The position numbers were made by a program, and so were the translations under genes. Positions 17,797-46,937 of a DNA stretch of 57,118 bases are shown here, one piece after another (the stretch's first letter is position 1; each line of letters opens with the position of its first letter). The notes beneath the pieces were generated by a model. The model saw only the letters and a list, made by a program, of their open reading frames with translations, was not told the DNA's origin and ran no database searches. The DNA is from Vulcanimicrobiota bacterium (GTDB lineage Bacteria; Vulcanimicrobiota; Vulcanimicrobiia; Eremiobacterales; Eremiobacteraceae): assembly GCA_013290125.1 (NCBI GenBank), contig JABCYQ010000019.1, positions 1-57,118 on the forward strand, read 5' to 3'.

Positions 17797-17822
17797 CTGA
17801 AGGGGCCGACGGTTGTCGGCCC
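17797..17822. repeat. single palindromic element
   Basis: CTGAAGGGGCCGAC followed by GGTT and GTCGGCCC lies 16 bases after the CDGSH stop. It is the same family as the 17311 array, with a different loop. Confidence 0.85.
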
Positions 17823-36561: not shown

Positions 36562-37206
36562 CTAGATCAGGCCGCGGCGAAAAGCCTCGACCGCAGCCTG
36601 CGTCCGGTCGGCGACCGAAAGTTTTTCCAATATGTCGCGAATGTGGCCCTTCACGGTGCCGAGACCGATCGAAAGTTTGGCGGCGATCTCCGCGTTCGAC
36701 TTGCCTTCGGCGATCAGTTCCAAAACCTGCGTCTCGCGCTCCGTCAACGGCGAAAGCGTCGCTCGAGCGGGGACGAGTGGGCGCCCAAACCCGCGCAAGA
36801 CGACGTGGGCGACGAGGGGATCGAAATACACGCCGCCTTCGGCCGCGATCCGCACAGCATCCAGCACCCGTTCCGGGCGCGATGCCTTGAGACAGTACGC
36901 GTCGGCGCCGGCGGCTAGAGCGGCGATGACCTCATCTTCGAGGTCGTGCATGGTGAGGATCACGACATGCGTCTTCGGCAGCGCACGGCGGATGCGGCCG
37001 GTGAGCGCGATTCCGTCCTCGCCCGGCAAGCCGATGTCGATGACCGCTACGTCGGGTGCGACCGAGGTCGCCAACTCAAACCCGCTCGGGCCGTCGGCAG
37101 CTTCGCCGACGACCTCGAATGCGCTATCGCGCGAAAGCGCAGTCACTAAGCCGGCGCGCGTCAACGCGTGGTCTTCGACGACAATGACGCGAATGCGATC
37201 AGCCAT
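36562..37206 (-). CDS. NarL/LuxR-type response regulator
   Basis: The 214-residue protein has a receiver domain (VVEDHALTRAG, phospho-acceptor Asp in VAVIDIGLPGEDG, Lys in YCLKASRP) and a C-terminal LuxR helix-turn-helix (LTERETQVLELIAEGKSNAE then IGLGTVKGHIRDILEKLSV). The ATG at 37206 overlaps the kinase gene by 8 bases, so the two form a two-component pair. The known Kdp regulator KdpE is of the OmpR type, so this pairing with a KdpD-like kinase half is unusual. Targets are unknown; the nearby kdp operon is the obvious candidate. Confidence 0.92.
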   Translation of the reverse strand: MADRIRVIVVEDHALTRAGLVTALSRDSAFEVVGEAADGPSGFELATSVAPDVAVIDIGLPGEDGIALTGRIRRALPKTHVVILTMHDLEDEVIAALAAGADAYCLKASRPERVLDAVRIAAEGGVYFDPLVAHVVLRGFGRPLVPARATLSPLTERETQVLELIAEGKSNAEIAAKLSIGLGTVKGHIRDILEKLSVADRTQAAVEAFRRGLI

Positions 37207-38803
37207 GCGCCGCCTCATGCGAAAGCGGAAGAAGAACGCTAAAGCGGCTGCCCCGCGGCGTCGCCGGTTCATACGTCGCGCGACCGCCGTGACTCTCCGC
37301 GATTCGACGCACGATATACAAGCCGAGTCCTGACCCGGCCCCGTGGCGCGCGCCTGGCGAAAACCGCTGGAAGAGAGTCGCGCGCTGCGCCTCGGGGACG
37401 CCAAATCCATCGTCTTCGATCTGCAGCCTCCCTTGAGCGCCGTCATCCTTGACTGAAACGTTCACGTGCCCGCCGCTCTGTGTGGATGCGATGGCGTTTG
37501 CGAGAAGGTTTACGATCATGCGGCGCAGCTCGCTCTCGTCACCTGAGACAGGGCGCCCAAGTTCGCCCGCTGCCCGGATGACGGTCACGCCGTTGTCGCG
37601 AGCCAGCGGATCCAATTCGGCGACGACGTCGTCCGTCAGAGCTCCGAGGTTGATAAGCGTTCGCGACGGCGACTGTTCACCCGATTCGTACCGGGCGACC
37701 ATCAAGAGTGTCTCGGCGAGCCGTTGCAGTTCGTCGTTGGAGTCGACCGTGCGTCGCAAGATCTCGATGTACGCCGGGGGCAGCTCGCCGAACGCTCCAT
37801 CGAGCGCCTGGCGCATCGTCATCCGCGCGGCGGCAAGCGGCGTGCGCAGATCGTGCGAGAGCGCATAGACGATGTCGCGGATCACCTCGCTGCGCTCGAC
37901 CGCCGCGTCATTTGCCGCCTCGAGCTGTTCGTTCTTCGCGGCGAGCTCCATGAACAAGTCGGCTTGTGCGATGGCCGCCGCGGCCTCGTCGGCGAAGGTC
38001 TGGGCGACGACTGACGTCTCTGCATCGAACGGCTCTTCCGCGCTCTTGCGCAAGACGACGATCACGCCTTGCCGGTTGGCTTTGCCCCCAAGAGGTACGG
38101 CAATTCCGTATGCCGCGCCCAACGTATCGAGAGCGAATCGGCTCATCGGATCCGAGGCGTCGAGCACGGCGACCTGGCCTGACTCGCGCACGCGAGTCAG
38201 CATCGAAGCGAGCTCGGGAGCCGGCCGCGCGCGACGCAGGTCGACATCGCGCACACCGCTTTCGGCGAGATACTGTTCTTCGGCGAACGAACCCGCGCCG
38301 CGCGAGAAGACGACGGCCGCATCCGCCTGCATCACGCGTAGAGATTCGCGCGCGATCGCGCGCAACACGATCTCGCGATTGACCGAATTGCGCATGACTT
38401 CGAACGACTCGCGCAGCGTCCGTTCGCGCTGGACCTGCCGTTGCCGGACCTCGATCTCGGCGACCGAGCGCGCGGCGCGCTGCGTTCCGATGCTGAGGGC
38501 GCCGACGAGAATGCACGACATCGCCGCCAGCACCCGATTCTCTACGGCGATCCGGTCCCAATGCCCCTCGTGATACGCGTTATACCAGCCGGCGACCGCG
38601 TTTGCGGCAAGCGCGGCGACGACGACGCGGATAGTGAGGCGCCGATCGAACGCGAAGCTCGTGAGCGCGATCGGCGCGTTCAATAAAATGGCCGCGATGA
38701 ACAGCTGCGGCGTGAACATGTCGATCGCAAACGCCGCCAATAACAACGCAGCGCATGCGATCGGGATGTATTGCGGCTTCAACGCCGAGCAGGTTCTGTG
38801 CAC
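37199..38803 (-). CDS. sensor histidine kinase resembling the C-terminal half of KdpD
   Basis: The 534-residue kinase has four membrane helices packed in the first 107 residues (about 12-29, 33-52, 58-74, 90-107), a GAF-like domain (about 140-285), HisKA with the phosphorylated His in ALSHDLRTPL and a HATPase domain with DDGFGVPE and GSGLGLYIVRRI. This is the order found after the KdpD and USP domains in KdpD, but those two domains are absent here. They occur, duplicated, in the divergent gene starting 53 bases away. It uses HisKA rather than HisKA_3 while its partner regulator is NarL-type. The start is GTG. Confidence 0.88.
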   Translation of the reverse strand: MHRTCSALKPQYIPIACAALLLAAFAIDMFTPQLFIAAILLNAPIALTSFAFDRRLTIRVVVAALAANAVAGWYNAYHEGHWDRIAVENRVLAAMSCILVGALSIGTQRAARSVAEIEVRQRQVQRERTLRESFEVMRNSVNREIVLRAIARESLRVMQADAAVVFSRGAGSFAEEQYLAESGVRDVDLRRARPAPELASMLTRVRESGQVAVLDASDPMSRFALDTLGAAYGIAVPLGGKANRQGVIVVLRKSAEEPFDAETSVVAQTFADEAAAAIAQADLFMELAAKNEQLEAANDAAVERSEVIRDIVYALSHDLRTPLAAARMTMRQALDGAFGELPPAYIEILRRTVDSNDELQRLAETLLMVARYESGEQSPSRTLINLGALTDDVVAELDPLARDNGVTVIRAAGELGRPVSGDESELRRMIVNLLANAIASTQSGGHVNVSVKDDGAQGRLQIEDDGFGVPEAQRATLFQRFSPGARHGAGSGLGLYIVRRIAESHGGRATYEPATPRGSRFSVLLPLSHEAAHG

Positions 38804-38856: not shown

Positions 38857-40965
38857 GTGGAACGTGAATCCGTTCGCGACAAGCCGGAACTGCTCTTACG
38901 ACAGTTGGCTTCGTCGACGCGGTTGACGGTGTATCTGTCCGCCGCGTCCGGAAGCGGCAAGACGCGCCGGCTCTTGACTGAAGCGCGCGAGTTGTCCGCG
39001 CGCGGCGTCCGCGTGCTCATCGGTTGGATCGAAACCAAGGATAGGCCGAATCTCGCGGAGCTCTGCGATGGATTAGGGAAATTGCCGCCGCGCAACGTCG
39101 AGATCGGCGGTGGAAGATTTGCGGACTTCGATCTCGCCGCTGCCTTAGCTGCGAAGCCGGACGTCATCGTGCTCGACGAGTTGCCGCACACGAACATCCC
39201 TGGCTCGCTCTACGCGAAACGATGGCAAGACGCAAACGCACTGCGAGCCGCCGGGATCAGCGTGATGACCGCGTTCAACGTGCAGCATCTTGAATCGGTC
39301 GCGCCGACCGCCGAACGATTGCTCGGGTTCCCGATCCGGGAGATCATCCCCGATTCGTTCCTTTCGGGCGCCGATGAAGTGATCGCGCTCGACGTTTCGC
39401 CGGAGCAGCTCGCCGAACGCGTGCGGGCCGGCTTAATCGTCCGCCCGGAAGACGCGGACGCGGCGCTCTCAGGTCCGTTCCGGCCGGCAACGCTGCGCGC
39501 ACTGCGCGAACTCCTCATGCGGACGATCGACGAACTGACGATCCCCGCCGTTGAGGCTAGACGAGTTTCTACCGCGGTCTTGTTCGCCCCAAGCGGAGCC
39601 GACGTGCAACGCGTGATTCGCCGCGCTTCAGAAGTCGCGAACGCGCTGGACCTCGCGCTCGAAGTCGCCGTCGAACGACAATCCGAGAACGATGGCGTGC
39701 AACGAACCGTCCGCGAGGCGGGAGCGCAGTTCATCGCATGGCCGCGAACACCTGACGGTCGCCCGACCGATGCCGTCAGCGCGTCGCTCGTCGTCGTGCC
39801 GCATGGGCTGTTGGCGGATCGGTTGGTTGCGGGTGCTATCGATCGCGACATCTTCGTCGTGGGGCAAGAACCGACTGTGGCTCAGTCGTCCGCGTTCGAT
39901 ATCCATCCGCTTGCGCAGACGGCGGGTGATCGGATGCGCGTCGGGTACGGCCGGCTTACGATCTATCTTGGCGCGAGCGCGGGCTGCGGCAAGACGTATT
40001 CGATGCTCGATCGCGCGCACGAACTCGCTGCCGCGGGCGTGGATGTGGTTGGCGCGTTCGTAGAAACCCACGGCCGCAAAGAGACGGCTGCCCTTATACC
40101 CGGTCTCGAGATGCTGCCCCGCAAGAGCATCGAGTCCGGAGGCATCCGCCGCGAAGAGCTCGATGTGGACGCTTTGCTCAAGCGGATGCCCACAGTGGCG
40201 CTCATCGACGAACTCGCGCACACAAACGCGCCCGGTAGCATCTTCTCCAAGCGATACGAGGACGTGCTCAGCGTCCTGCGCTCGGGCATCTCTGTGGTGA
40301 CAACGCTGAACATCCAACACCTTGAAGGCTTGGGTGAAGCCGTGGCGCGACTGACCGGCGTGCGCGTTCGCGAAACTCTGCCCGACCGCATCCTGGATCT
40401 CGCAGACGAGGTCATCTTCATCGATTGTCCGCCCGATCTGCTGCGCGAGCGCTTGCGCGCTGGAAAGATCTATCCGCCCGACCGGATCGATCGCGCGCTC
40501 AGCAATTTCTTCAGGCCCGAGAATCTTGCCGCTCTACGGGAACTTGCGCTGCGCGAGTCGATTCGCGCGCGCGGCAAACGGCCGGGCCAATCGGCTATCG
40601 TCAGGCTAATCGTGGGCGTCGCCGACAGGGAGCGCGATGGCTCGCTCATCCGCCGGTGCGCTGCGCTTGCCGGCCGGCTCGAGGTGGGATTCTCCGTCGC
40701 CCACGTGGCGCGCAATGCTGGGCACGCGTCGGACGCATTGACGGAGCTGCGGACACTGTGCCGCGATCTTCGGGGCCGCTGGGTGCAGCAGACCGCGGAC
40801 GATACAGCGCGAGGGCTCATCGAAGCTGCGGCCGCCGACGGCGCGACGACGATCATGATCGAGGGAGCGAGAACGCGACCGAAGCTGTTCAGCGGCCCTT
40901 CTTTTGCGCGCCGACTTCTAAAAGCCGGCGTACAAGACATGTTGGTCTTAACCGCTCCGCTTTAG
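38857..40965 (+). CDS. tandem KdpD N-terminal/USP protein without a kinase domain
   Basis: The 702-residue cytoplasmic protein has two complete KdpD-type sensory modules in a row. Module 1 has Walker A at residues 28-36 (AASGSGKT), DELPHTNIPGS at 107-117 and a USP-like domain at about 238-337. Module 2 has Walker A at 372-380 (GASAGCGKT), DELAHTNAPGS at 451-461 and a USP-like domain at about 595-700. No membrane helix or kinase follows. In KdpD this region binds ATP and tunes kinase output. Module 2 is near the KdpD consensus while module 1 has drifted. The SxS...FTAxY cyclic-di-AMP motif known from S. aureus KdpD is not seen in either USP. The start is GTG. Confidence 0.9.
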   Translation: MERESVRDKPELLLRQLASSTRLTVYLSAASGSGKTRRLLTEARELSARGVRVLIGWIETKDRPNLAELCDGLGKLPPRNVEIGGGRFADFDLAAALAAKPDVIVLDELPHTNIPGSLYAKRWQDANALRAAGISVMTAFNVQHLESVAPTAERLLGFPIREIIPDSFLSGADEVIALDVSPEQLAERVRAGLIVRPEDADAALSGPFRPATLRALRELLMRTIDELTIPAVEARRVSTAVLFAPSGADVQRVIRRASEVANALDLALEVAVERQSENDGVQRTVREAGAQFIAWPRTPDGRPTDAVSASLVVVPHGLLADRLVAGAIDRDIFVVGQEPTVAQSSAFDIHPLAQTAGDRMRVGYGRLTIYLGASAGCGKTYSMLDRAHELAAAGVDVVGAFVETHGRKETAALIPGLEMLPRKSIESGGIRREELDVDALLKRMPTVALIDELAHTNAPGSIFSKRYEDVLSVLRSGISVVTTLNIQHLEGLGEAVARLTGVRVRETLPDRILDLADEVIFIDCPPDLLRERLRAGKIYPPDRIDRALSNFFRPENLAALRELALRESIRARGKRPGQSAIVRLIVGVADRERDGSLIRRCAALAGRLEVGFSVAHVARNAGHASDALTELRTLCRDLRGRWVQQTADDTARGLIEAAAADGATTIMIEGARTRPKLFSGPSFARRLLKAGVQDMLVLTAPL

Positions 40966-40967
40966 AT

Positions 40968-41065
40968 CTGAAGGGCGCTAGTCGGCCCACGTTATATCTG
41001 GCTGGGCCGACTAGCGTCGGCCCCTTCAGGATCGCCCGCCCCTTCAGGATCGCCGGCCCCTTCAG
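40968..41065. repeat. cluster of palindromic elements before the kdp operon
   Basis: A direct copy (40968-40988) and an inverted full copy (41004-41029) flank GTTATATCTGGCT. Two further 18-base partial units follow (about 41030-41047 and 41048-41065), each ending in CCCCTTCAGG. The cluster begins 3 bases after the stop of the tandem KdpD gene and probably ends its transcript. Confidence 0.85.
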
Positions 41066-41123
41066 GTTCGTAGAAGTTGCCCATTTGTCGAATCGTGTCC
41101 GGTCGGACTATCCGTTCGGCGGC

Positions 41124-41179: not shown

Positions 41180-41263
41180 ATGCTCGACTTGATTCTCCTT
41201 GTCATCACCGTAGTGGGTTTCCTCATGCTCGACCGCTACGCAGCCGCGTGCGAGCGGCTTTGA
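41180..41263 (+). CDS. 27-residue single-helix peptide leading the kdp operon
   Basis: The ATG at 41180 follows GGAGGAGGG with 6 bases between and encodes MLDLILLVITVVGFLMLDRY plus AAACERL. It is one membrane helix with a short charged tail. It stops one base before kdpF. Small helices of this form, ending in an arginine/cysteine-containing tail, occur at the head of kdp operons in other phyla as I recall, so it is likely a real subunit or accessory peptide. No function is established. Confidence 0.7.
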   Translation: MLDLILLVITVVGFLMLDRYAAACERL

Positions 41264-41264
41264 C

Positions 41265-41351
41265 ATGATCGATCAAATCATCGGACTGATACTCTCGATC
41301 CTCGCGCTCGGCTACCTCGTGTACGCCATGTTGCGCCCGGAGAAATTCTAG
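41265..41351 (+). CDS. kdpF: potassium-transporting ATPase small subunit
   Basis: The 28-residue peptide MIDQIIGLILSILALGYLVY plus AMLRPEKF is one hydrophobic helix ending in LRPE(K/R)F, the KdpF signature. KdpF stabilises the KdpABC complex in the inner membrane. It lies 13 bases before kdpA. Confidence 0.92.
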   Translation: MIDQIIGLILSILALGYLVYAMLRPEKF

Positions 41352-41364
41352 TGAGCGATAACGA

Positions 41365-43065
41365 ATGACGGGCATCGGCTGGCTTCAGGCGCTCATCCTC
41401 TTCGGCTTGGTTCTCGTGGCCGTCAAGCCGCTCGGCGCATTCATGGCGCGCGTGTTTCAAGGCGAATCCACGTTCTTGACGCCGGTTTTTGCGCCCATCG
41501 AGCGCATGATCTATCGCCTCTGCGGCGTCGACCCAAAAGAAGAGATGCCGTGGTATACCTACCTCTTCGCCACGCTCGCCTTCAGCGCGGTTGGCCTCAT
41601 CTATCTATACGTCTTGCTCCGTACGCAAGCGTTTCTGCCGCTGAATCCGCAGAAATTCGGCAACCTCGCCCCGGATCTCGCGTGGAACACGGCCGTCAGC
41701 TTCGTCACGAACACCAACTGGCAATTCTACGCGGGTGAGAACACCCTTAGCTATCTTTCGCAGATGGTCGGGCTCGCTTGGCACAACTTCACCTCCGCCG
41801 CGGTCGGCATCGTCCTAGCGATCGCGTTCATCCGCGGTATAGCACGCACGGATCTTCGCACGCTCGGCAATTTCTGGGCGGACATGACGCGCTGCTGCCT
41901 TTACGTGCTGCTGCCGATCTCGATCGTCGGCACGCTGCTGCTCGTCTGGACCGGCGTGCCGCAGAATTTCCACGCTTACGAGACAGTGACGTCGATCGAC
42001 GGCTTCCATCAGGCGATCACGGGCGGCCCAATGGCTTCGCAAGAGGTCATCAAAGAGCTCGGCACCAACGGCGGCGGATTCATCGGCCAGAACTCGGCCG
42101 CCCCGAACGAAAATCCGACGCCGCTCAGCGACTTGTTCGAGCTCTGGCTCCTCCTTGTGATCGCAGCCGCGCTGACGTATACGTTTGGACGCATGGTGAA
42201 AGACCAGCGACAAGGCTGGGCGCTCTTCATCGCGATGTCCATACTGTTCTTCGTCGGGCTCGTAGTGGCGTACGCGTCTGAAGCGGCCGGCAATCCAATC
42301 GTCCACCAGCTCGGCGTGTTGGGCGGCAACATGGAGGGCAAAGAAGCGCGCTTTGGCATCGCAGCGTCTTCGCTCTGGGCGGTTGCCACCACCGCTACGT
42401 CGTGTGGTGCCGTCAACGCCATGCACGATTCGTTCACCGCGCTCGGCGGCCTCATCCCGATGCTCAACATCCAGCTCGGCGAGATCATCTTCGGCGGCGT
42501 CGGTAGCGGCCTCTACGGCAAACTGATCTTCGTCATCCTCACGGTCTTCATCGCGGGCCTCATGGTGGGGCGGACGCCGGAATATCTCGGCAAGAAGATC
42601 GAGCGGCGGGAAGTGCAGCTCGCGATTCTCTTCATCCTTATAACGCCGCTCTTCACACTGGTCCCCACGGCGATCGCGGCGATCAATCCAGCGGGTCTGG
42701 CCACGCTCGGCAATTCTGGTCCGCACGGCTTCTCTGAGATCCTCTACGCATACACGTCGGCCACCGGCAACAACGGCAGCGCGTTTGCCGGCCTCGGACC
42801 GAATCTGTTCTACAATGTCTCGATGGGCATCGTGATGTTCTTCGGCCGATTCGCCGAATTCGTGCCGATGCTGGCGCTCGCGGGTGCACTAGCCGGCAAG
42901 CGCGCCGTGGCCGCGTCGGCCGGAACGTTCACGACGCATTCGCCGATCTTCGTCGGCCTGCTCATCGGCACGATTCTGATCGTGGGGGCTCTCACGTTCT
43001 TGCCCGCCGACGCGCTTGGCCCGATCGTCGAACACCTACTCATGATCCAAGGAAAGACGTTTTAG
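41365..43065 (+). CDS. kdpA: potassium-transporting ATPase, potassium-binding subunit
   Basis: KdpA is the channel-like subunit of the high-affinity K+ pump. The 566-residue protein has about ten membrane helices and four selectivity-filter-like segments: NTNWQFYAG, GTNGGGFIGQNSA, TTATSCGAVNAMHDS and TGNNGSAFAG, matching the superfamily of K+ transporters. Length equals the usual 555-580. It directly abuts kdpB. In low external potassium it works with KdpB, KdpC and KdpF. Confidence 0.97.
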   Translation: MTGIGWLQALILFGLVLVAVKPLGAFMARVFQGESTFLTPVFAPIERMIYRLCGVDPKEEMPWYTYLFATLAFSAVGLIYLYVLLRTQAFLPLNPQKFGNLAPDLAWNTAVSFVTNTNWQFYAGENTLSYLSQMVGLAWHNFTSAAVGIVLAIAFIRGIARTDLRTLGNFWADMTRCCLYVLLPISIVGTLLLVWTGVPQNFHAYETVTSIDGFHQAITGGPMASQEVIKELGTNGGGFIGQNSAAPNENPTPLSDLFELWLLLVIAAALTYTFGRMVKDQRQGWALFIAMSILFFVGLVVAYASEAAGNPIVHQLGVLGGNMEGKEARFGIAASSLWAVATTATSCGAVNAMHDSFTALGGLIPMLNIQLGEIIFGGVGSGLYGKLIFVILTVFIAGLMVGRTPEYLGKKIERREVQLAILFILITPLFTLVPTAIAAINPAGLATLGNSGPHGFSEILYAYTSATGNNGSAFAGLGPNLFYNVSMGIVMFFGRFAEFVPMLALAGALAGKRAVAASAGTFTTHSPIFVGLLIGTILIVGALTFLPADALGPIVEHLLMIQGKTF

Positions 43066-45153: not shown

Positions 45154-45753
45154 ATGAATACGAACAAGACGACCGACAACACGCTGCGCCACCTGTGGCC
45201 GTCGGTGATGTTCACCCTGATCACTGTCGTGCTGTTCGGGATCGTCTATCCCGTCGTCATGACCGGGATCTCGCAACTCATGTTCCCAACCCAGGCGAAC
45301 GGCTCGATCGTGAGCGTCGGCGGTAAACCCGTGGCGTCCACGATCATCGGCCAGCTATGGAAGTCAGCGAAATATTTTCAAGGCCGTCCGTCAGCGGCAG
45401 GCAACGGCTACGATCCCACGTCGACGGGTGCGACAAACCTTGGACCCACGTCGAAGAAGTTGATCGATGCCACGCGCAGCGCGATAGCAGCGCTGAAGAA
45501 GGCGAATCCGAACGCGACGGATCCGGTTCCCATGGATCTCGTCACGACGAGCGCGAGCGGAATCGATCCCGACATCAGCCCGGAAGCCGCGAGCTATCAG
45601 GCGCCGCGAGTCGCATCTGCGCGGCATATGTCGCTTGACGCGGTGCGTTCGCTGATCGCGGCGCACGTCGCCCCAAGGCAGTTGGGATTTCTGGGCGAAC
45701 CGCGCGTCAACGTGCTGGAGCTCAATATGGCTTTGGACGGTATACACTCATGA
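45154..45753 (+). CDS. kdpC: potassium-transporting ATPase subunit C
   Basis: KdpC is the single-helix subunit that supports ATP binding and assembly of the Kdp complex. The 199-residue protein has its membrane helix at about residues 13-35 and a periplasmic domain with YFQGRPSAAGNGYDP, SGIDPDISPEAASYQAPRVA and a LGEPRVNVLELN ending, all typical. It overlaps the next gene by 4 bases (ATGA), so the porin is in the same operon. Confidence 0.96.
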   Translation: MNTNKTTDNTLRHLWPSVMFTLITVVLFGIVYPVVMTGISQLMFPTQANGSIVSVGGKPVASTIIGQLWKSAKYFQGRPSAAGNGYDPTSTGATNLGPTSKKLIDATRSAIAALKKANPNATDPVPMDLVTTSASGIDPDISPEAASYQAPRVASARHMSLDAVRSLIAAHVAPRQLGFLGEPRVNVLELNMALDGIHS

Positions 45754-46937
45754 ACCGAGTTCGCCGGCTGACGATAGCGCTTAGTGCGAGCCTGCTTGCG
45801 TTCAGCGGCATTGCCTACGATCGCGCCGTCGCCGATCCTACGCCGGCGCCAGGCGCATCGGCCATGCCCAGTCCGACGCCGTCGCCAAGTCCGTCGCCTG
45901 CTCCGGCCGTGACTTTGCACGGCGTCCTGAGCGGTACTCTTGCCATGACGAGCGGCGTCAACGCGACCGGCAGTTTCGATTCGCCATCGGGCATGGACAG
46001 TTCGTCGCGCGTGAACGTTTCGAACGCGTTCGTGTTGCTGTCGAAAACTCAGGGTGTGATGCAGTTCGCGCTGCAAGGCGGCGCGTATAGCATTCCGACC
46101 GTCGGCGTCGCCGGAAACAAGACGACCGCCGCCAATGCGAACACCGGTCTGTACGGACCGCTGCCGCTTGCTCAGCTATCGTACGTGCCGACGAGCAACT
46201 TCAATATCAATGCCGGGATACTGGCGACGTTGACCGGTGCGGAATCCACGTATACGTATCTAAATTGGAACGTTCAGCGCGGTGCTGTCTGGAACGTCGA
46301 GAACGCGGTGAGTCGCGGGGTGCGCGCGTCGTTTACATCGGGCAAGCTCACCTATACGCTCGGTGCAAACGATGGTTTTTGGAGCGGAAAATATGGCGCT
46401 GCGGAGGGATCGCTCACATTTGCGCCTGACAGCAACGACTCGCTCTTGTTCGTCGCTCTGATTCCCAATAGCAGGACTCCCGGAAATCCGACCGCGTCGG
46501 TCGCGAACAAAGAGTTGCTCAATCTCGTCTTCACAAGGACGCGCGGCAACCTTCAAATCGCGCCGTACATCCTCTACACGCGTTCACCCGCGGCGCCCAG
46601 CCTCGGATACGCCGGTGCAGAAAGCGCTTTCGGCGCGGCTCTCTTGGCGAATCTGACGCTGAGCAGCCATTTCACGACGGCGTTCAGATACGAGACGCTG
46701 CACAATGCCAGCACGATCAACGACAAGAGCGCGAACGCGGATCTCGTCGGTTATGGGCCAGGCAGCGGCATCAACACCTACACGCTGACGCCGGGGTGGA
46801 CGAACGGGCATACGTTCATCCGCTTAGATTTCTCCACCGCGCGCGTCACGAGCTCAGCCGACGGTTTGGCGTTCGGAAGCGACGGCGATCAGCACAATCA
46901 GTTCCGCACGGTGTTGGAGATTGGAACGCAGATCTGA
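45750..46937 (+). CDS. outer membrane beta-barrel porin of the kdp operon (BBP2/OmpL-like)
   Basis: The 395-residue product has a signal peptide, a Pro/Ser/Ala-rich segment (about 29-52) and a series of amphipathic beta strands ending with the aromatic/charged outer-membrane pattern FRTVLEIGTQI. It resembles putative beta-barrel porins (BBP2/OmpL type) that follow kdpC in some Acidobacteria-like genomes. Its ATG overlaps the kdpC stop, so it is probably made when the pump is made and could admit K+ through the outer membrane. This is evidence that the organism is diderm. The region to 47217 carries only a promoter for the next gene. Confidence 0.75.
   Translation: MNRVRRLTIALSASLLAFSGIAYDRAVADPTPAPGASAMPSPTPSPSPSPAPAVTLHGVLSGTLAMTSGVNATGSFDSPSGMDSSSRVNVSNAFVLLSKTQGVMQFALQGGAYSIPTVGVAGNKTTAANANTGLYGPLPLAQLSYVPTSNFNINAGILATLTGAESTYTYLNWNVQRGAVWNVENAVSRGVRASFTSGKLTYTLGANDGFWSGKYGAAEGSLTFAPDSNDSLLFVALIPNSRTPGNPTASVANKELLNLVFTRTRGNLQIAPYILYTRSPAAPSLGYAGAESAFGAALLANLTLSSHFTTAFRYETLHNASTINDKSANADLVGYGPGSGINTYTLTPGWTNGHTFIRLDFSTARVTSSADGLAFGSDGDQHNQFRTVLEIGTQI

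What the first reader, a model, noticed from the sequence alone, without database searches (positions are those of the whole stretch)
38857..40965. One protein with two complete KdpD-USP sensory modules in tandem and no kinase
KdpD normally has one KdpD domain and one USP domain fused to a transmembrane kinase. Here two such modules are fused head to tail (Walker A at residues 28-36 and 372-380; DELPHTNIPGS and DELAHTNAPGS), and the protein ends there. The second module is close to consensus while the first has lost the leading Gly of Walker A and altered the DELAHTN box, as if one copy catalyses and the other regulates. Free-standing KdpD N-terminal proteins are known from cyanobacteria, but I do not know a described tandem form. 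Neither USP shows the SxS...FTAxY cyclic-di-AMP motif, so its ligand may differ.
Basis: partly seen in the sequence, partly recalled or inferred. Interest (0 to 1): 0.78.

Follow-up and report, generated by a model that had tools for sequence, protein, structure and literature searches.

The report
Double serine-kinase brake for potassium pump
This gene makes a soluble protein carrying two copies, joined end to end, of the module that in other bacteria switches off the potassium pump KdpFABC; the double form is a widespread but unstudied variant of a known brake, and its two copies seem to have different jobs.

Summary
In detail: the 702-aa protein has two strong KdpD (PF02702) domains and no histidine-kinase domain. 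"No kinase" is outdated, because the KdpD domain is itself an atypical serine kinase that inhibits KdpB (PMC11018627). The locus is Deinococcus-type: a divergent sensor kinase and response regulator, kdpFABC, and a stand-alone KdpD-N, here doubled. The response regulator is 50% identical to the D. radiodurans one shown to activate kdp. The tandem is class-wide (pairs in about 87 of 89 genomes with a strong hit). It also occurs in Paenibacillaceae, other Bacilli and some cyanobacteria, including a contig with exactly the chromosome length of Alicyclobacillus acidocaldarius, whose split kdpD locus was published in 2006. Module 1 keeps every catalytic residue but has lost the aromatic adenine-stacking residue, and its USP is shortened. 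Two predicted models pair the USPs as in tandem-type USPs. Module-2 motifs deviate almost only in genomes without KdpFABC, while module 1 stays intact there. Best reading: a covalent pseudo-dimer in which module 2 phosphorylates the TGES serine of KdpB and module 1 does something else.

The parts
38857..40965 (+). tandem KdpD-USP protein, 702 aa (KdpD-N duplicated; KdpN-like)
38917..39528 (+). module 1 KdpD domain; Walker A SAASGSGKT (res 28-36), Walker B DE (res 107-108), adenine position R37, R188
39550..39912 (+). module 1 USP, shortened (about res 232-352); predicted beta1-alpha1-beta2-alpha2-beta3-beta4-alpha4-beta5
39949..40557 (+). module 2 KdpD domain; Walker A GASAGCGKT (res 372-380), Y381, Walker B DELAHTN (res 451-457), R532
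   Evidence: model matches KdpD crystal structure 2r8r at Z 31.9
40600..40962 (+). module 2 USP (about res 582-702), full USP fold without the SxS c-di-AMP motif
41180..41263 (+). 27-aa hydrophobic ORF upstream of kdpF
   Evidence: read from the DNA
41266..41352 (+). kdpF, 28 aa
   Evidence: read from the DNA
41365..43065 (+). kdpA
   Evidence: TIGR00680, PF03814
43066..45141 (+). kdpB, with the TGES serine that KdpD phosphorylates in E. coli
   Evidence: TIGR01497; TGES in all 98 KdpB copies long enough to show the motif
45154..45753 (+). kdpC
37199..38803 (-). divergent TM-GAF-HisKA-HATPase sensor kinase, homologous to D. radiodurans SK DR_B0082
36562..37206 (-). NarL/LuxR-type response regulator (listed ORF is longer; true start near residue 81), 50% identical to D. 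radiodurans DR_B0081

Best explanation
A stand-alone KdpD N-terminal protein (atypical serine kinase plus USP) duplicated and fused into a covalent pseudo-dimer. The two USP domains pair with each other and carry the two P-loop kinase domains. When K+ is sufficient, module 2 phosphorylates the TGES serine of KdpB and stops the pump; transcription is handled separately by the divergent sensor kinase and response regulator. Module 1 still binds nucleotide and has some other, KdpB-independent role, such as tuning module 2 or acting on another protein. Shown here: architecture, conservation, genomic linkage, predicted USP pairing, decay of module 2 where the pump is lost. Inferred: the kinase activity itself, its substrate in this organism, the signal, and the role of module 1.
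For: E. coli and D. geothermalis KdpD N-terminal domains phosphorylate KdpB S162; the essential residues are known (PMC11018627). All are kept in module 2, and all but the adenine stacker in module 1. kdpFABC with TGES lies next door. Of 43 class loci, 31 have kdpB/C nearby and 34 the divergent HK. The RR is 50% identical to DR_B0081, whose deletion abolishes kdp expression. No DUF4118-bearing KdpD was found in most of the class. Module-2 motif deviations occur in 3 of 5 genomes without KdpFABC and in 1 of 75 others; that one, G130, also had no KdpA or KdpB hit above cut-off. Predicted USP1-USP2 pairs match tandem-type USPs: Z 17.8 over 222 residues and, for a Bacillota tandem, Z about 21 with pTM 0.88. 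The two modules also occur as adjacent separate genes.
Against: No activity was measured. pTM for the window model is only 0.52. Genomes G055, G088, G015, G093 and G116 keep the gene without KdpFABC, and dN/dS there (0.10-0.17) is no higher than elsewhere, so KdpB may not be the only target. Several genomes with the tandem lack a diadenylate cyclase (G015, G016, G020, G022, G049), so the signal is uncertain. The decay test rests on 5-6 genomes.
Confidence: 0.7

Rival explanations
1. Module 1 is a pseudokinase that only regulates module 2: it binds a nucleotide but transfers no phosphate.
For: Module 1 has R or H in place of W39/Y and a shortened USP in the whole class. In Paenibacillaceae-type tandems module 1 has lost the catalytic E110 (DG/DD/DQ in 15 of 15), and E110A abolishes activity in E. 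coli.
Against: In the window's class E110 is kept in 55 of 56 proteins and D109, G36, K37, T38 and R190 in all, more than a purely structural role would demand.
Confidence: 0.4
2. The protein works in trans with the divergent sensor kinase as a split KdpD, tuning its phosphatase activity and hence transcription, rather than phosphorylating KdpB.
For: Conserved divergent pairing with HK-RR (34 of 43 loci); in E. coli the N-terminal domain influences phosphatase activity and signalling (PMC2714519, PMC11018627).
Against: The HK's N-terminal part shows no DUF4118 similarity. Loss of kdp goes with decay of the module-2 kinase motif, and some genomes keep the protein after losing both HK-RR and kdp.
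Confidence: 0.2
3. It controls other K+ or cation transporters (TrkA-type proteins or a Na+/H+ exchanger) as well as, or instead of, KdpFABC.
For: TrkA-TrkA pairs and a Na+/H+ exchanger flank the locus in many genomes, and in G088 and G055 the tandem directly follows the TrkA pair with no kdp genes. Module 1 stays intact in the pump-less genomes.
Against: Adjacency only. No substrate motif is known, and module 2 decays without KdpFABC.
Confidence: 0.2

Closest known systems
KdpN / split kdpD of Alicyclobacillus acidocaldarius (Schleussinger et al. 2006, title seen in reference lists)
   Same: Contig G660:C1 has exactly the published chromosome length, 3,018,755 bp. It encodes kdpABC followed by a tandem KdpD-USP protein, with a divergent KdpD C-terminal half and a response regulator.
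   Different: There both modules look fully intact and the divergent kinase is a true KdpD C-half with DUF4118; here module 1 and USP1 are modified and the HK/RR are Deinococcus-like. The paper was not readable; the name KdpN and its description are from memory.
KdpD-N (DR_B0088) with SK/RR of Deinococcus radiodurans
   Same: Same locus plan: divergent SK-RR next to kdpBAC plus stand-alone KdpD-N; RR 50% identical, SK homologous over kinase and TM parts.
   Different: Single KdpD-USP module, 365 aa.
NCBIfam NF038185 'KdpD-like non-kinase potassium sensor'
   Same: Best NCBIfam hit, matching twice.
   Different: Whole-protein score 482.6 is below the cut-off of 550; the family model has one module.
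Full-length KdpD (E. coli)
   Same: KdpD domain (41% and 51% identity to modules 1 and 2) and USP.
   Different: No TM, GAF or histidine kinase here; two modules instead of one.
Tandem-type USPs (UspE/YdaA, 3loq)
   Same: Predicted pairing of USP1 and USP2.
   Different: In UspE the two USPs follow each other directly; here a kinase domain lies between them.

Membership tests
KdpD N-terminal atypical serine kinase (PF02702) | PF02702 domain above the curated cut-off | tested here: met
   two stretches
KdpD N-terminal atypical serine kinase (PF02702) | Walker A GKT, Walker B DE and the adenine arginine needed for phosphotransfer | tested here: met
   both modules
KdpD N-terminal atypical serine kinase (PF02702) | aromatic residue stacking adenine (W39 in E. 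coli) | tested here: inconclusive
   met in module 2 (Y381), not met in module 1 (R37)
KdpD N-terminal atypical serine kinase (PF02702) | phosphorylates the KdpB TGES serine | not testable with these tools
   target motif present in the adjacent kdpB; activity needs the bench
Short KdpD/USP controlled by c-di-AMP | USP with (A/G/C)XSXSX2N(Y/F) motif (S. aureus type) | tested here: not met
   absent in both USPs; D. radiodurans KdpD-N lacks it too, so it does not settle c-di-AMP binding
Short KdpD/USP controlled by c-di-AMP | diadenylate cyclase in the same genome | tested here: met
   DAC at G000:C41, but absent in some tandem-bearing relatives
KdpD histidine kinase | HisKA plus HATPase on the same chain | tested here: not met
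KdpD non-kinase sensor NF038185 | score above the curated cut-off | tested here: not met
   482.6 against 550
Tandem KdpD-USP (KdpN-like) | two PF02702-USP modules on one soluble chain linked to kdpFABC | tested here: met

The most novel reading that the evidence does not exclude
The two serine-kinase modules have separate substrates: module 2 brakes KdpFABC, while module 1, with an altered nucleotide pocket and a ligand-blind USP, acts on another K+ transport component (for example the TrkA proteins or the Na+/H+ exchanger encoded alongside), so that one protein coordinates several transporters.
Probability: 0.15. Interest if true: 0.75.

Novelty: new variant of a known kind. Interest (0 to 1): 0.45.

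Why it matters
KdpD's serine-kinase role was recognised only in 2024, and how the USP controls it is open. A tandem form that fixes two kinase modules and two USPs on one soluble chain, without a membrane part, is a convenient system for testing how USP pairing gates the kinase. The association between loss of the pump and decay of module 2, but not module 1, offers a genome-based handle on which module acts on KdpB. The survey also shows that the tandem layout is widespread and was not discussed in the main text of the 2024 domain survey.

Tried and rejected
Assembly artefact or frameshift: rejected, the fusion recurs in many genomes. Hidden kinase domain: rejected. Split KdpD C-half in the divergent HK: no DUF4118 similarity by Pfam or by profile comparison; it resembles D. 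radiodurans SK instead. Riboswitch near the locus: no Rfam match up to E 1. Phage or viral copies: none. Independent origins of the tandem: the trees suggested several, but AU tests reject neither one clade of all first modules (p 0.35) nor class modules 1 and 2 as one clade (p 0.45), so the number of origins is left open. Plasmid search gave only single-module relatives among the rows listed. Literature: no open paper found that describes the tandem form; Schleussinger 2006 is not held, and the supplement of PMC11018627 could not be read.

Full report
Observation. The ORF at 38857-40965 (+) encodes 702 aa. Pfam finds two PF02702 stretches and no histidine-kinase, DUF4118 or GAF domain. The genome has no other PF02702 hit. 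The two KdpD domains are 47% identical to each other; across 56 class proteins the mean is 40%, so the duplication is old. USP2 is a clear USP. USP1 is shortened and barely recognisable by profile comparison, and the model shows a USP-like fold lacking one helix.

Setting. Downstream lie a small hydrophobic ORF, kdpF, kdpA, kdpB, kdpC and a BBP2-type porin. Upstream and divergent lie a TM-GAF-histidine kinase and a NarL-type response regulator. In D. radiodurans the same plan is published: SK and RR divergent from kdpBAC plus a stand-alone KdpD-N, and RR deletion abolishes kdp expression (PMC5716572). The window RR is 50% identical to that RR, and the HK is homologous to that SK over both kinase and membrane parts. 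In 43 class loci, 34 have the divergent HK and 31 have kdpB/C nearby. In 28 of those 31 kdp runs towards the tandem gene instead of following it; the window's own genus is among the exceptions.

Distribution. In the phylum, about 87 of 89 class genomes with strong PF02702 hits have a pair of them (counted by hand); 56 single-frame tandem proteins were aligned. Outside the class the tandem occurs in Candidatus Cyanaurora vandensis, a Bacillota bacterium, Saccharibacillus alkalitolerans and G131, in five further genomes of the Cyanobacteriota sample, in most Paenibacillaceae genomes with hits and in other Bacilli. In G776 and G766 the two modules are adjacent separate genes. One contig, G660:C1, is 3,018,755 bp long, exactly the published chromosome length of Alicyclobacillus acidocaldarius DSM 446. 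It carries kdpABC followed by a tandem and a divergent KdpD C-terminal half with a response regulator. This fits the title of Schleussinger et al. 2006 on a split kdpD in two divergent operons. That paper could not be read; that its KdpN is this protein is an inference, and the name is from memory. Class modules 1 and 2 each form a fully supported clade (100/100), so the fusion predates the sampled class radiation. AU tests leave the number of origins open.

Mechanism. In E. coli the KdpD N-terminal domain is an atypical serine kinase that phosphorylates KdpB S162 in TGES. Walker A, D109, E110 and W39/R190 are needed, and a short KdpD-USP from D. geothermalis does the same under c-di-AMP (PMC11018627). 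Module 2 keeps all of these (Tyr at 39, as in D. radiodurans). Module 1 keeps all except the aromatic residue, which is Arg in 43 and His in 9 of 54. In Paenibacillaceae-type tandems module 1 has lost E110 in all 15 distinct sequences checked, so there it is probably a pseudokinase. All 98 KdpB copies long enough to show the motif have TGES.

Division of labour. Five high-quality class genomes keep the tandem but have no KdpA and no KdpB above cut-off: G015, G055, G088, G093, G116. At 13 motif positions of module 2, three of these five deviate (G055 A375T; G093 G372A, A375P, H455R; G116 G372A, K379T), against 0 of 55 others (Fisher p 2.9e-4). With 20 more proteins it is 3 of 5 against 1 of 75 (p 4.8e-4). 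The one exception, G130, also had no KdpA hit and no KdpB above cut-off but is only 74% complete; moving it to the pump-less group after the fact gives 4 of 6 against 0 of 74 (p 9e-6), which is post hoc. Module 1 shows no deviation in the five pump-less genomes. These counts are exploratory, have no phylogenetic correction, and G055 deviates only by one conservative change. They suggest that module 2 is the KdpB kinase and that module 1 is held by something else. Over the whole gene, dN/dS in two pairs with one pump-less member (0.17, 0.10) is within the range of pairs with the pump (0.07-0.17), so the protein is still under selection without KdpFABC, at least on average over the two branches. 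In G088 and G055 it follows two TrkA-type genes.

Structure. The window model (pLDDT 84.6, pTM 0.52) has two confident P-loop domains; module 2 matches the KdpD crystal structure 2r8r (Z 31.9). Its two USPs taken together match tandem-type USPs (Z 17.8, 222 residues, 3.2 A). A second tandem, from the Bacillota bacterium, gives pTM 0.88 and Z about 21 over some 240 residues to the same structures. A covalent USP pseudo-dimer is therefore a reasonable prediction, better supported for the Bacillota protein than for the window's own.

Signal. Neither USP has the S. aureus c-di-AMP motif; D. radiodurans KdpD-N lacks it too. The genome has a diadenylate cyclase, but several relatives with the tandem do not. 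c-di-AMP is possible and not shown.

Verdict. Real, conserved, and a new variant of a known kind: a tandem KdpD-N serine-kinase brake on the Kdp pump. The tandem layout very likely exists in a published locus. The asymmetry and the module-specific decay are the parts worth following up.

Noticed in passing
window 40976-41070: Perfect 14-nt inverted repeat (40976-40989 / 41003-41016) followed by three 20-nt direct repeats at 18-nt spacing (CGTCGGCCCCTTCAGGATCG) between the tandem gene and kdpF; a near-copy lies at 17797-17821 (-).
   Followed up: partly
window 41180-41263: 27-aa hydrophobic ORF directly upstream of kdpF, possibly a second KdpF-like peptide.
   Followed up: no
L049 6783-8170, L056 3458-4825 and others: TrkA-TrkA gene pair beside the kdp island in about a dozen of the class loci fetched, with a Na+/H+ exchanger often nearby; in G088 and G055 the tandem gene follows the pair directly and kdp is gone.
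   Followed up: partly
L035 11071-12435: In G015 (no kdp) the tandem gene has an Nramp-type transporter gene nearby.
   Followed up: no
L072 (G086:C73): Second tandem KdpD-USP copy in a genome that has another copy beside kdp; no HK or kdp genes within the stretch.
   Followed up: no
L199 5581-7923, L207 5346-7671: Two KdpD-USP modules as adjacent separate genes after kdpABC, a possible pre-fusion or fission state.
   Followed up: partly
L087 1-2462 (-): Saccharibacillus alkalitolerans also has a very divergent KdpD-like protein with DUF4118-like and kinase parts near the tandem gene; its KdpD domain has DR in place of DE.
   Followed up: no
window 45750-46937: BBP2-type outer-membrane porin gene overlapping the end of kdpC, also beside kdp in many relatives.
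   Followed up: no
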